From contig QFXI01000010.1 of assembly GCA_003402315.1 (NCBI GenBank), positions 1-64,000 on the forward strand: a stretch of 64,000 nt of DNA, read 5' to 3'. Below the pieces are notes generated by a model that searched no databases, had not been told where the DNA came from, and saw nothing but the letters and a program-made list of their open reading frames with translations. Every line of letters begins with the position of its first letter. Position 1 is the first letter of the stretch. Both the position numbers and the translations under genes were made by a program. This DNA comes from Candidatus Nitrotoga sp. LAW. GTDB lineage: Bacteria; Pseudomonadota; Gammaproteobacteria; Burkholderiales; Gallionellaceae. Positions 16,000 through 20,441 of the stretch are shown piece after piece.

Positions 16000-16236
16000 T
16001 CAAACTGCCTGAAGCAATTCAAGCACCGCACGCTGTTCATTTTGTAGCGACGAAGACTGTGTATCGGCAATCATATCCCAGAGTATCGGGTCGGGCATGT
16101 CCAGCAACCTATCAAATGCAGCCTGCTGCGCCTCATTCAAACTTGCATAATGCTGCCCGATAAATCGGCCCAGCACGATGTCAAGTTCCAACAGACCGCG
16201 TCGACAGCGCCAGCGCACGCGTTCCAGTTCTTTCAT
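16000..16236 (-). CDS. sdhE: FAD assembly factor SdhE
   Basis: SdhE helps attach FAD covalently to SdhA. The 78-residue product carries the hallmark RxGxxE motif as RRGLLELD near residue 13, and the length is typical of the family (formerly DUF339). Its ATG overlaps the sdhB stop by 4 nt (ATGA), so the two are translationally coupled and act on the same complex. Confidence 0.95.
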   Translation of the reverse strand: MKELERVRWRCRRGLLELDIVLGRFIGQHYASLNEAQQAAFDRLLDMPDPILWDMIADTQSSSLQNEQRAVLELLQAV

Positions 16237-16928
16237 ACTGCACGCTTCACCATTAACGCTTTAATTTTTCCTATGGCTGCCGTAGGATTCAAACCTTTGG
16301 GGCATACATCCACACAATTCATAATAGTGTGGCACCGAAACAGCCGATACGGGTCTTCCAGATTATCTAGCCGCTCGCTCGTTGCCTGATCACGACTGTC
16401 AACGATAAAACGATAGGCTTGCAGTAAACCAGCGGGACCTACAAATTTATCAGGATTCCACCAAAATGATGGGCAAGCAGTTGTGCAACAGGCACACAAG
16501 ATGCATTCATACAAACCGTCCAGCTCAGCGCGCTGCGCTGGCGACTGTAAGCGCTCGGTTTCTGGAGGCGGATCGTTATTCACCAAATAAGGCTTAATCG
16601 AATGGTACTGCTTGAAAAACTGCGTCATGTCCACGATTAGGTCACGTATCACAGGCAAACCAGGCAACGGACGCAATTCAATTGGTTGCTTCAAGCTGGA
16701 CAGCTGCGTAATGCAAGCCAAGCCATTGCGCCCATTAATATTCATGGCATCCGAGCCACACACTCCTTCGCGACAAGATTTGCGCAAACTTAGGCTGTCG
16801 TCCTGCTCCCTGATAAGTAATAACGCATCTAGCAACATCATATCGCCCGCTTCTATGTCCAACTCATAATTGTGCATATAGGGCTGCTCGTCAGTTTCAG
16901 GGTTATACCGGTAAATTTTGAATTGCAT
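16233..16928 (-). CDS. sdhB: Succinate dehydrogenase iron-sulfur subunit
   Basis: Carries electrons from the SdhA flavin to quinone through three Fe-S centres. In the 231-residue protein the [2Fe-2S] ligands are in SCREGVCGSDAM and NGLAC, the [4Fe-4S] ligands in CILCACCTTACPSFWW, and the [3Fe-4S] ligands in CHTIMNCVDVCPKG. The length matches the family. AGAGGAA lies upstream of the ATG. The gene is unusual in lying 1.75 kb away from the end of sdhA, because a DUF262 gene and remnant sequence intervene. Expression may therefore depend on read-through of the insert or on a new promoter. Confidence 0.98.
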   Translation of the reverse strand: MQFKIYRYNPETDEQPYMHNYELDIEAGDMMLLDALLLIREQDDSLSLRKSCREGVCGSDAMNINGRNGLACITQLSSLKQPIELRPLPGLPVIRDLIVDMTQFFKQYHSIKPYLVNNDPPPETERLQSPAQRAELDGLYECILCACCTTACPSFWWNPDKFVGPAGLLQAYRFIVDSRDQATSERLDNLEDPYRLFRCHTIMNCVDVCPKGLNPTAAIGKIKALMVKRAV

Positions 16929-16999
16929 GGTTTCATTCCTCTGCTAATCGCGTCGAGCCATTTACCTCCACTATCCCCGCATCTCGCCCAATCGTCCGC

Positions 17000-17098
17000 C
17001 TCAAAATAATTACGGGTCCACAGCCTATTTTTAAACTCGTGACCACACCAACACACTTTATTTTTTGCTGAATTATATTGAATGCTTCAGTCACTGGC
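17000..17098 (-). pseudogene. Decayed duplicate of the sdhA 3' end
   Basis: Bases 17068-17097 match 18763-18792, inside the 3' end of intact sdhA, at 26 of 30 positions, with 12 in a row identical (TGAATGCTTCAG). Read in the sdhA frame the remnant gives stop-LKHSI-stop-FS, against WLKHSLYFS in intact SdhA; both stops are single-base changes. Weaker similarity (CTGTGGA..., then GAGGCG versus AAGGCG) seems to run on towards sdhB to about 17000. It lies immediately upstream of sdhB, where the original end of sdhA should be. I infer that it is the original sdhA end, displaced when the DUF262 segment integrated and supplied a fresh end. The outer limits are approximate. Confidence 0.7.
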
Positions 17099-17178
17099 TG
17101 CACTACATATGGCTATCGTACATATGACCACCAAAGCTCACTTCACACAATGCCAGAAACTATGGCGGCTTACGTATT

Positions 17179-17331
17179 TCAACGAGGTGAACCAAGCTCC
17201 CATTCTATCGGCACTCCAACAAGGTACCCACCTATCAGTAGCTTGATTAATGACAGGGCATGTTTTACGTTAAAGCCAGCACTTTCAAAATCGTAATCAT
17301 TCCCTGATACCTATTTTTCCAACCTATACAG
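17179..17331 (-). pseudogene. Frameshifted DUF1524 (GmrD-like) remnant of the DUF262 gene
   Basis: Beyond the point where the DUF262 ORF runs into unfamiliar sequence, another minus-strand frame reads LYRLEK, a TAG stop, then VSGNDYDFESAGFNVKHALS. This resembles the start of the DUF1524 domain that normally follows DUF262 (RYxLxxLE...SGxxYDFExAxxxxEHILP). The HNH-type His is only partly kept (VKHALS rather than xEHILP), and a second stop follows at 17179-17181. I infer that the ancestral protein was a full DUF262-DUF1524 nuclease whose C-terminal part has decayed. Confidence 0.6.
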
Positions 17332-18662
17332 CGAGAAGTAGTCGTACTGATTTTTTTAGCAGAAAAAGCGCTACGAAATTCGTCATCGCTAGGATAAATA
17401 AATTGCATGGCTTCCAATACAGCTATCGCAGTACTAATATCACCACGTGAAATTTTTTGTGCCACCAAATAATAAATACTCTCTTGTTTGTTCGTCGGCT
17501 GACTGCCAATTACAATGTAGCGAAACGCAATCGCTATACAATTACATAACACACGCTCAAAGTCACTGGCAGACAGCATTCGATGAGCTGCCAAAAGCAA
17601 TGGAAAAGGCTGGCGCACTCTAAGCATATGCAAGTCCCGAATAGATTCCTTGAGATCAACAGGCCATTGTGATGACTCCACCTCGGTAAGCGCCAGATAG
17701 GTTTTTATATCCTCTTCCATACCCTGCAACAGCTTGAAAACTTCTTCACGGCTTGTTATTTCGGAACGTATGGTTTTAAAAAGCTCAGATTGCCTAACAA
17801 AAGTATGGCGGCTAATCCAGTACACTAGCAAAAAATCGGGGAAACTCTCGCTACCCAAGCAAATAACCATTGCTTCCCAGCGGTCTTCCAAAATTTTCAT
17901 TTCATGCAAATAATCCTTATCGTCATATAGCACAGACAAGAGATGGTTTTTCAGCAAATCCACTGAGGATAGCCGTATGCCGCGTGCATTAAGCATTTCA
18001 AATACTTTATAGGCATTGAGTTCATCAGTAACGCTGATAACCGTAAAAAATAGCCTGTCACTAATTGACTCCACAAGACTTGCCAGCGTTACTCCTTCGT
18101 CCCCGCCAACAATTTTTGTATATTCATTCATTTTGATCGCAAACCATTCTAATGCTTTGCACAGCCTGCGCTCAGATTCCTTACAGCCACTTTGCAATAA
18201 ATAATCCAGTGGGATCAAATAATTTTGAAAATAAACATCGTTATTGCGATTGAGCGTAAGCTTGGTTTGCGACACCAACGTTACAGGATCAAGATAAGTA
18301 ATATAGGTTTGACGAATTTGATCCATCCGTTGCTGATTAACTTCCGGATTGCTTTTTTCTGCAATCAATCGCGCTAAATTCTTGAGTGCCGCTAAAGTAA
18401 TCAGCATGAGGGTTGTCAAACGCTGCTGCCCTTCAATCACATCGAATGTCCTGTTATCTTTCGATTGCAATACAAGGTAGCCCATATAGTGCGCTGGTTC
18501 GCCGTCGGCCTGAATAACCGCCATAATATCTGCCCACAAATCTCCCCATTCATTTTCCGTCCAGCTATAGTCCGGCTGAAAATGAGGTATACGATAACTC
18601 AAGCCATTACTGATCAACTTGCGATAAGTATTATTTTCCGTTTTAAAATTGGTTGCAGACAC
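17265..18662 (-). CDS. DUF262 (GmrS-like) protein, C-terminally truncated, inserted in the sdh operon
   Basis: DUF262 proteins have a ParB/Srx-like nucleotide-hydrolysing fold and belong to GmrSD-type (type IV) restriction and other anti-phage systems. The 465-residue product shows YRIPHFQPDYSW near residue 23 (usually IPxFQRxYxW; here Arg is Pro) and the signature DVIEGQQRLTTLMLI near residue 74. A long helical region follows. The last about 25 residues do not look like the family, while DUF1524-like sequence continues in another frame, so a frameshift or small deletion removed the nuclease half. It lies 15 nt after sdhA and separates it from sdhB. Without DUF1524 it may be inactive, although its long intact frame suggests recent decay or a retained partial role. 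Confidence 0.85.
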   Translation of the reverse strand: MSATNFKTENNTYRKLISNGLSYRIPHFQPDYSWTENEWGDLWADIMAVIQADGEPAHYMGYLVLQSKDNRTFDVIEGQQRLTTLMLITLAALKNLARLIAEKSNPEVNQQRMDQIRQTYITYLDPVTLVSQTKLTLNRNNDVYFQNYLIPLDYLLQSGCKESERRLCKALEWFAIKMNEYTKIVGGDEGVTLASLVESISDRLFFTVISVTDELNAYKVFEMLNARGIRLSSVDLLKNHLLSVLYDDKDYLHEMKILEDRWEAMVICLGSESFPDFLLVYWISRHTFVRQSELFKTIRSEITSREEVFKLLQGMEEDIKTYLALTEVESSQWPVDLKESIRDLHMLRVRQPFPLLLAAHRMLSASDFERVLCNCIAIAFRYIVIGSQPTNKQESIYYLVAQKISRGDISTAIAVLEAMQFIYPSDDEFRSAFSAKKISTTTSRCIGWKNRYQGMITILKVLALT

Positions 18663-18677
18663 GCTTCTATCTCCTGA

Positions 18678-20441
18678 TTAGTACACTCGCGCCTTAAGCG
18701 GAAATGATTCCACAGTCAACGGTTTCAGCCGAACTGGCTTGTAATCCAGTTTTTTCCCTTCACTGAAATATAGTGAATGCTTCAGCCAATGGTCATCATC
18801 GCGTTGAGGGAAGTCATCGCGCGCGTGCCCGCCACGGCTTTCTTGCCTCGCTGCAGCCGAGGCCATGGTGGCTTGCGCTACTTCGATTAGATTATCGAGC
18901 TCCAATGCCTCCACGCATGCAGTATTAAACACCTTACTCTGATCATTAATCATGGTGTTTTTTACGCGCTCGGCCACTGTACGGATTTTTTCCACGCCTT
19001 GAGTCAGCAAATCAGGAAACCGAAATACACCGCAATGATTTTGCATCACGCGCCGCATCTCCGCCCCTACTTCGGCCACACTCTCACCATTTTTTTGTGA
19101 TCTCAGCCTTGCAAGGCGCGCCAGCGGACGTTCAGCGGCATCGTGTGGCAATGGTTTTGGATGCGGGTTACGCTGCAAGTCCTCGATAATCTGCCTCGCC
19201 ACCTCACGCCCAAACACCAGCAAATCCAGCAATGAATTACAGCCCAGCCGGTTAGCGCCATGCACCGACACGCAAGCGCATTCACCCACCGCATAAAACC
19301 CCTGCACCACTTCTTCTGGCCCTGTTTTGTATGGGGCAACCACTTGGCCATGATAATTGGTGGGAATACCCCCCATCATATAATGCGCAGTGGGCACCAC
19401 CGGAATGGGGTTCAGGGCCGGATCAACATGCGCAAATTTTAGGGAAATCTCACGGATACCAGGCAAACGCTGACGGATGACAGCATCACCAATGTGGTCC
19501 ACTTTCAATAAAACATGATCACCATGTTTACCGCAACCGCGCCCTTCCTTGATCTCAGTGGCAATGGCACGTGACACCACGTCACGGCTGGCGAGGTCTT
19601 GCGCATTTGGCGCATAGCGCAGCATAAAGCGCTCGCCATCTTTGTTGATAAGATAACCGCCCTCACCGCGTACACCTTCTGAAATCAGCACACCCGCGCC
19701 ATACACGCCAGTGGGATGAAACTGAAAAAATTCCATGTCCTCCAGCGGAATGCCGGCACGGGCCGACATGCCCAGGCCATCGCCGGTATTAATATAAGCA
19801 TTGGTGCTAGCCTGAAAAATGCGCGCCGCGCCTCCGGTAGCAAACAACGTGGCGCGCGCCTGCAAAATCATCACTTCACTGGTTTCAATTTCCATTGCCA
19901 CCACGCCGAGAACATCCCCATCTTCATCACGGATTAAATCCAGAGCCATCCACTCCACGAAAAAAATGGTATTACTCTGCATATTTTTTTGATACAACGT
20001 ATGCAACAAGGCATGGCCAGTGCGATCAGCCGCGGCACAAGCGCGCTGCACCGGGGTCTTGCCATAGTCTTGCATGTGGCCGCCGAATGAGCGCTGATAA
20101 ATTTTGCCATTTTCCAAACGATCGAATGGCATGCCGAAGTGTTCCAGTTCGTACACCACTTCCGGCGCGGCGCGACACATGAATTCAATGGCATCCTGAT
20201 CGCCCAGATAATCCGAACCTTTCACCGTATCGTACATATGCCAATGCCAATTGTCCTCGTTGATATTACCCAACGATGCCGCAATACCACCTTGCGCCGC
20301 TACCGTATGCGAACGTGTGGGAAAAACCTTGGACAATACCGCCACCTTCAAGCCCGCCTCAGACAATGCCAAAGCCGCGCGCATCCCTGCACCACCCGCC
20401 CCTACAATTACAACGTCAAATGTGCGTTTCGCCACTGCCAT
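18678..20441 (-). CDS. sdhA: Succinate dehydrogenase flavoprotein subunit
   Basis: Oxidises succinate to fumarate at a covalently bound FAD. The product from the chosen start is 587 residues: FAD motif [14 protein letters not shown], flavin-linking His in [12 protein letters not shown], active-site blocks [21 protein letters not shown] and [13 protein letters not shown]. The start was set at 20441 ([10 protein letters not shown]) because its ATG overlaps the sdhD stop in TGATG; an upstream in-frame ATG would add ten unsupported residues and overlap sdhD. Its last about 20 codons have a decayed copy 1.7 kb downstream, next to sdhB. Confidence 0.97.

What the first reader, a model, noticed from the sequence alone, without database searches (positions are those of the whole stretch)
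17000..18792. DUF262 gene inserted between sdhA and sdhB, leaving a duplicated and decayed end of sdhA
The sdhA-sdhB junction, normally compact, is split by about 1.75 kb holding a DUF262 defence-type gene. On the far side of the insert, just before sdhB, lies a 30-nt segment 26/30 identical to the 3' end of sdhA. In the sdhA frame it reads stop-LKHSI-stop-FS against WLKHSLYFS. This is what is expected if incoming DNA carried its own sdhA end and integrated at that point, restoring the gene and displacing the old end. It suggests an integration mode using a conserved protein-gene end in place of a tRNA.
Basis: partly seen in the sequence, partly recalled or inferred. Interest (0 to 1): 0.75.

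Follow-up and report, generated by a model that had tools for sequence, protein, structure and literature searches.

The report
Displaced sdhA end beside inserted gene
In nitrite-oxidising Nitrotoga bacteria a lone defence-type gene sits inside the succinate dehydrogenase operon, and the decayed old end of sdhA is still visible behind it, a scar that hints at how single genes can enter core operons without breaking them.

Summary
Between the DUF262 gene and sdhB lies a decayed copy of the sdhA 3' end about 142 nt long (17062-17203, minus strand), not 30 nt. It is found in 9 of 13 spacers of genus members that carry the gene or its remains here (best E 2e-21, window E 9.7e-9). The gene is at this site in 13 of 19 genomes of the genus. 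In the 10 intact copies aligned, the HNH half is gone and DGQQR reads EGQQR, yet median dN/dS is 0.14. Full-length relatives sit in other core operons: before rarA, between nusB and thiL and, for a remoter one, between dapC and dapD. One genome (G032) shows the same scar with other genes: lolA, a type IIG restriction gene, a 147-nt old lolA end, DUF262, rarA. I read this as additive recombination: homology in the upstream gene, illegitimate joining on the far side. Not shown: that the intact sdhA end is foreign (tree tests undecided). Not supported: an integrase. Protein-gene ends as integration sites are already known (e14 in icd).

The parts
18678..20441 (-). sdhA, succinate dehydrogenase flavoprotein subunit, intact, 587 aa; its 3' end is the intact copy
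   Evidence: TIGR01816 above cut-off; Pfam FAD_binding_2 and Succ_DH_flav_C
17265..18662 (-). inserted DUF262 (GmrSD_N) gene, 465 aa, GTG start 15 nt after the sdhA stop; HNH half (GmrSD_C) missing
   Evidence: PF03235 E 1.5e-31; PADLOC HEC-06 E 1.3e-164 over profile positions 1-443 of 569; alignment with six full-length relatives
17062..17203 (-). decayed copy of the sdhA 3' end (displaced gene end)
   Evidence: nhmmer with an sdhA 3' profile, E 9.7e-9 in the window and 2e-21 in G009; shuffles
16992..17307 (-). possible full extent of the displaced sdhA end, overlapping the last codons of the DUF262 gene (window positions worked out from the consensus, approximate)
   Evidence: consensus alignment of nine spacers, score 70.5 against at most 32.8 in 300 shuffles; the outer parts taken alone are weakly (upstream) or not (downstream) significant
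16929..16991 (-). remaining sdhA-sdhB intergenic stretch with the likely sdhB ribosome-binding region
   Evidence: GCAGAGG..ATG block alike in most spacers and in G005, which lacks the gene (by eye)
16233..16928 (-). sdhB, succinate dehydrogenase iron-sulfur subunit, intact, 231 aa
   Evidence: TIGR00384 and NF004616 above cut-off

Best explanation
In the ancestor of 13 of the 19 genomes of the genus, incoming DNA that carried an sdhA end followed by a DUF262/GmrSD-type restriction gene was added at the sdhA-sdhB junction. It recombined by homology within sdhA. Its other side was joined illegitimately, or a circle went in by a single crossover. The host sdhA kept a complete end, DUF262 came to lie inside the operon, and the host's old sdhA end was pushed to the far side, where it has decayed in front of sdhB. 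Shown: the insertion, its place, the second decayed sdhA end, its presence across the clade, and purifying selection on the gene. Inferred: one-sided homologous recombination as the route, a close relative as donor, later loss of the HNH domain, and a function in defence or one derived from it.
For: Displaced end found in 9 of 13 spacers, at the corresponding place in the alignment. The 13 carriers form one group in the sdhA tree (support 1.000 for the whole gene, 0.886 for the 3' part), with G005, which lacks the gene, nearest. The insert holds one gene, placed 15 nt behind the sdhA stop with a ribosome-binding-like stretch. Full-length relatives with nearly the same first residues (MSATNFKTENNTYRKLI) lie in other core operons: before rarA (G032, G131) and between nusB and thiL (G156, G087). 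In G032 a type IIG restriction gene lies behind lolA, and behind that a 147-nt old lolA end (score 79.5, 500 shuffles reach at most 18.3; also a protein match, E 5.3e-13). G131 and G032 share DUF262 and about the first 400 nt of rarA at 85-96% DNA identity; left of the gene identity drops to 63-70% and lower, as expected if homology on one side carried the gene. A ComEC-type competence gene is present in the window's genome. dN/dS of DUF262 has a median of 0.138 over 45 pairs of 10 intact copies.
Against: No donor arrangement was found: DUF262 relatives above 60% identity in the family lie elsewhere than at sdhA outside this genus, and the two other copies of the type IIG gene among 158 genomes (G023, G018) have no lolA within 1.5 kb. 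The remnant's ancestry is unresolved at both loci. The scar is rare: of 9 lolA|rarA junctions with more than 600 nt between the genes only G032 shows one, and of 34 sdhA|sdhB junctions without DUF262, 8 have spacers above 200 nt and none a recognised scar. In the G131-G032 comparison rarA falls to 76-80% after 400 nt but rises again to 85-88%, so the homology edge is soft. The ComEC family also rings in E. coli in the tool's control, so it is weak evidence for natural competence. Exact joins cannot be read because the remnant has decayed.
Confidence: 0.55

Rival explanations
1. Site-specific integration at the sdhA end, as with e14 in icd: an element with an integrase carried its own sdhA end as attachment site and was later reduced to the DUF262 gene.
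For: The product looks the same: restored gene end, old end on the far side. e14 leaves a 163-bp icd' copy (PMC6379469, passages).
Against: Apart from DUF262 no listed frame in the window's insert exceeds 72 aa and the four small frames tested match no Pfam family; the other genomes' spacers were not scanned for integrase pieces. DUF262 starts 15 nt behind sdhA and the remnant begins about 60 nt behind its stop, so little else can have been there. Cargo at such junctions is mostly one gene.
Confidence: 0.15
2. Tandem duplication of the host's own sdhA end, followed by entry of DUF262 between the copies, or one event within the lineage in which both ends are native.
For: The remnant agrees with the carriers' own sdhA more often than with outgroups, 25:10, 10:7, 13:6 and 16:4 at informative sites.
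Against: The two-step form needs two events at exactly the same place, and no genome with the duplication alone was seen in the loci examined. A close-relative donor gives the same site counts. A second locus with other genes and the same layout argues for one coupled process.
Confidence: 0.25
3. Chance similarity of a 30-nt stretch.
Against: 0 of 2000 shuffles and 0 of 1194 control stretches reach the score; matches in nine genomes, best E 2e-21.
Confidence: 0.01

Closest known systems
Homology-facilitated illegitimate recombination, and the displaced effector ends in Vibrio cholerae T6SS arrays (PMC5361080, passages read; PMC3240628, abstract)
   Same: Homology anchors one end of incoming DNA, the other end joins illegitimately; in the T6SS case an old 3' end is shifted behind the new module.
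   Different: There the replaced part is an effector gene or its domain and the module includes immunity. Here the anchor gene is a core enzyme whose function does not change, and the cargo is a lone defence-type gene.
e14 integration in icd of E. coli (PMC6379469, passages)
   Same: A protein-coding gene end is restored by the incoming DNA and the old end (163 bp) lies on the far side.
   Different: e14 is a prophage with site-specific integration; here there is one gene and no recombinase seen.
GmrSD/DUF262-DUF1524 type IV restriction enzymes, PADLOC HEC-06 (PMC4619093, passages)
   Same: N-terminal GmrSD_N domain, near full-length match to HEC-06 up to position 443.
   Different: In Nitrotoga the HNH domain GmrSD_C is absent and the DGQQR motif reads EGQQR in the 10 intact copies aligned.

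Membership tests
GmrSD-type (DUF262-DUF1524) restriction enzyme | GmrSD_N (PF03235) domain | tested here: met
   110.6 bits, cut-off 33.2
GmrSD-type (DUF262-DUF1524) restriction enzyme | GmrSD_C / HNH (PF07510) domain, fused or separate | tested here: not met
   Absent from the window protein at E 0.001, present in the full-length relative at 423-556; a separate GmrD partner elsewhere in the genome was not searched for
GmrSD-type (DUF262-DUF1524) restriction enzyme | (I/V)DGQQR motif | tested here: not met
   VIEGQQR in the 10 Nitrotoga copies, VIDGQQR in the six full-length relatives aligned
Integrase-dependent element at a gene end (e14/icd kind) | duplicated gene end on both sides of the insert | tested here: met
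Integrase-dependent element at a gene end (e14/icd kind) | recombinase gene in the insert | tested here: not met
   No listed frame other than DUF262 exceeds 72 aa; four small frames match no Pfam family; window only
Homology-facilitated illegitimate recombination | homology at one end only | tested here: inconclusive
   sdhA on the left; right join decayed; donor not found
Homology-facilitated illegitimate recombination | RecA-dependent uptake and joining | not testable with these tools
   only presence of a ComEC-family gene was checked

The most novel reading that the evidence does not exclude
Lone defence-type genes enter core operons by a general 'gene-end replacement': incoming DNA brings a complete end of the upstream core gene, so the operon is never broken, and the old end is left behind the cargo as a scar that decays. 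sdhA|sdhB in Nitrotoga, lolA|rarA in G032 and perhaps sdhB in G011 are snapshots of different age, and many clean single-gene insertions in core operons would be the same process with the scar gone.
Probability: 0.35. Interest if true: 0.65.

Novelty: new variant of a known kind. Interest (0 to 1): 0.5.

Why it matters
Single defence-type genes are found between housekeeping genes with no integrase or transposon in sight. A scar behind the inserted gene turns the question of how they got there into one that can be tested by scanning genomes for displaced gene ends. The locus also shows a restriction-type protein that lost its nuclease half yet stays under purifying selection inside a respiratory operon.

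Tried and rejected
Foreign origin of the intact sdhA end: sliding identity against 21 relatives showed no clear break. The last 230 nt are 0.766 identical to G005 against 0.806 for the rest; other relatives show no consistent drop. AU tests at sdhA and lolA reject nothing; the remnant's branch at sdhA is very long. My first reading (note) that the lolA remnant was the native end and close to G131 was not borne out: in 8 of 10 relatives the intact end matches at least as often as the remnant (for example G144 18:13, G131 17:12, G143 16:16), in G019 and G021 the remnant by one site.

A general scar at cargo-bearing junctions: rejected as a rule. One search covers 37 sdhA loci. In one search G025 was skipped, six had under 30 nt to compare, and 30 were aligned: G000, G006 and G009 pass clearly, and G031 gave an off-site match (21.8 against 18.4 in 60 shuffles) that I take as chance. 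In one search, 22 lolA and 20 sdhA loci gave one scar (G032). G159 (18.8 against 15.9), G066 (21.1 against 20.4) and G174 (13.0 against 12.4) are slightly above their 30 shuffles and were not followed. The lolA loci were mostly the closest lolA matches, so they are not a random sample.

Donor search for the G032 type IIG gene: 3 of 158 genomes hold it at E 1e-100, two of them without lolA within 1.5 kb. G025 has a frameshift before its only sdhA end, so it is not a displaced copy. Extra sdhA ends in G153 and G158 lie at contig ends and were not counted; those in G124, G105 and others in the capped list were fetched in part and not analysed. Promoters inside the insert: 0 found, 4.6 expected from shuffles; one terminator-like site, 1.7 expected; no conclusion. 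Literature: the listings show no report of this insert; they search only the held open library.

Full report
What is there. The window is contig C10 of a 2.81 Mb genome. Its nearest named relatives are Candidatus Nitrotoga, family Gallionellaceae. All three genes lie on the minus strand: sdhA 18678-20441, the DUF262 gene 17265-18662, sdhB 16233-16928. The sdhA-sdhB spacer is 1749 nt.

The copy is longer than stated. A DNA profile of the sdhA 3' ends of 13 genomes was run against 13 spacers. It matched 9: G009 2e-21, G006 1.1e-15, G001 1.1e-14, G014 4.4e-13, G013 6.9e-13, G018 6e-11, G000 (window) 9.7e-9, G015 9.7e-8, G007 0.0019. It did not match G003, G017, G008 and G012. G003 and G017 appear to share a deletion that removes the copy and leaves the gene intact (by eye). 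G008 keeps only the first 138 residues of the gene, and G012 has a decayed gene. In the window the match covers 17062-17203. The consensus of nine spacers aligns to sdhA over about 320 nt, nearly to the stop (70.5, 300 shuffles at most 32.8); taken alone, the upstream part is weakly significant (0.2%) and the downstream part is not (23%). A family-wide profile run on 47 sequences (36 stretches behind sdhA and 11 further stretches) found, at E 0.1 or better, six of the carriers, the intact sdhA inside one fetched stretch, and one 42-nt sdhA end upstream of sdhB in G011 (E 3.5e-6).

Distribution. Of 19 genomes of the genus, 13 hold the gene or its remains at this place (for G013 the contig breaks inside it). 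The 13 carriers form one group in the sdhA tree (support 1.000), with G005, which has no gene and a 357-nt spacer, nearest. This reads as one old acquisition with later losses, not an exchangeable cassette.

The gene. It carries GmrSD_N and matches PADLOC HEC-06 up to position 443 of 569. A full-length relative carries GmrSD_C at 423-556. The 10 intact Nitrotoga copies lack this half and read EGQQR where six full-length relatives read DGQQR. DGQQR is the proposed NTP-binding motif (PMC4619093, passages). dN/dS has a median of 0.138 over 45 pairs of the 10 intact copies (sdhA 0.026, sdhB 0.016; G008, G012 and G013 left out as incomplete). The protein is therefore maintained, probably with a changed activity.

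The gene family appears between core genes elsewhere. Of 158 genomes of the family, 37 match at E 0.001. The nearest outside the genus are G032 (63%), G131 (63%), G156 (62%) and G087 (63% and 77% on two contigs). They lie before rarA (G032, G131) and between nusB and thiL (G156, G087), not at sdhA (lolA, nusB and thiL confirmed, where RarA scores below the curated cut-offs). Of 399 genomes of the order, 10 match the G156 protein at E 1e-60. Some of these lie in other settings: G283 beside a methylase in what looks like a defence island, and G243 (42%) between dapC and dapD. For the same query the best plasmid match is 63% (Paracoccus) and the best phage match 28%.

A second scar. In G032 the order is lolA, a type IIG restriction gene (Eco57I and TaqI_C domains), a 147-nt copy of the lolA end with a frameshift, DUF262, rarA. 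The copy scores 79.5 against at most 18.3 in 500 shuffles and appears independently as a protein match (E 5.3e-13). The same layout with another core gene and another cargo argues for one kind of event.

How common. sdhB was found behind sdhA in 27 of 37 loci and 19 of 20 further loci. Twelve of these carry the DUF262 gene or its remains. Of the other 34, eight have spacers above 200 nt, none with a recognised scar; G159 and G174 lie slightly above their 30 shuffles. lolA|rarA: 22 loci, 9 with more than 600 nt, one scar (mostly the closest lolA matches, not random). Cargo at these junctions, one protein each tested in Pfam: YhcG/DUF1016 nuclease, KilA-N (two more alike by eye), a glycosyltransferase, a Y1 transposase relative, NERD, PDDEXK_3 and DUF3617; named by eye only: a 10.5-kb restriction island (G143) and a GGDEF-like protein (G159).

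Mechanism. The product fits DNA that recombined inside the upstream gene by homology and joined without homology on the far side, or a circle integrated by one crossover. It keeps the upstream gene whole and leaves the old end behind. G131 and G032 share DUF262 and about 400 nt of rarA at 85-96% DNA identity, with a sharp drop at the left end of the gene; in rarA identity falls to 76-80% and rises again to 85-88%, so that edge is soft. The window's genome has a ComEC-family gene, as E. coli has in the control. Against: no donor was found, and the ancestry of both remnants is unresolved. At sdhA the remnant leans to the carriers' own sdhA (25:10, 10:7, 13:6, 16:4), while a quick tree puts it on the outgroup side with low support. 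The donor, I infer, was a close relative, or there was none.

Comparison. e14 in icd leaves a 163-bp icd' copy (PMC6379469, passages), so gene ends as integration sites are known, but by site-specific integration of a prophage. Displaced 3' ends by homology-facilitated illegitimate recombination are proposed for T6SS effector arrays (PMC5361080, passages), and the process is described in competent bacteria and E. coli (PMC3240628, abstract). New here, as far as the listings show, is the scar next to lone defence-type genes in core operons.

Verdict. Observation confirmed and extended; interpretation partly supported; a new variant of a known kind.

Noticed in passing
L071 2534-2575 (minus strand): In G011 (71% complete) a 42-nt copy of the sdhA end lies upstream of sdhB, with a gene that looks like DUF3617 between them, while the intact sdhA is on another contig.
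   Followed up: partly
L080 788-5035: G032: type IIG restriction gene behind lolA, then about 380 nt with several short hairpin-like repeats, then the old lolA end in front of DUF262. The hairpins were seen by eye and not analysed.
   Followed up: partly
L068, L069: In G021 sdhA and sdhB are 23 kb apart, with genes that look like sensors and regulators between; in G030 and G051 they lie far apart on one contig.
   Followed up: no
L109: G025 has a frameshift before its only sdhA end; error or real loss not decided.
   Followed up: no
L144-L163: lolA|rarA often holds extra genes, several nuclease-like, in the Gallionellaceae loci looked at.
   Followed up: partly
L100: A remoter DUF262 relative (42% identity to the G156 protein) lies between dapC and dapD in G243.
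   Followed up: partly
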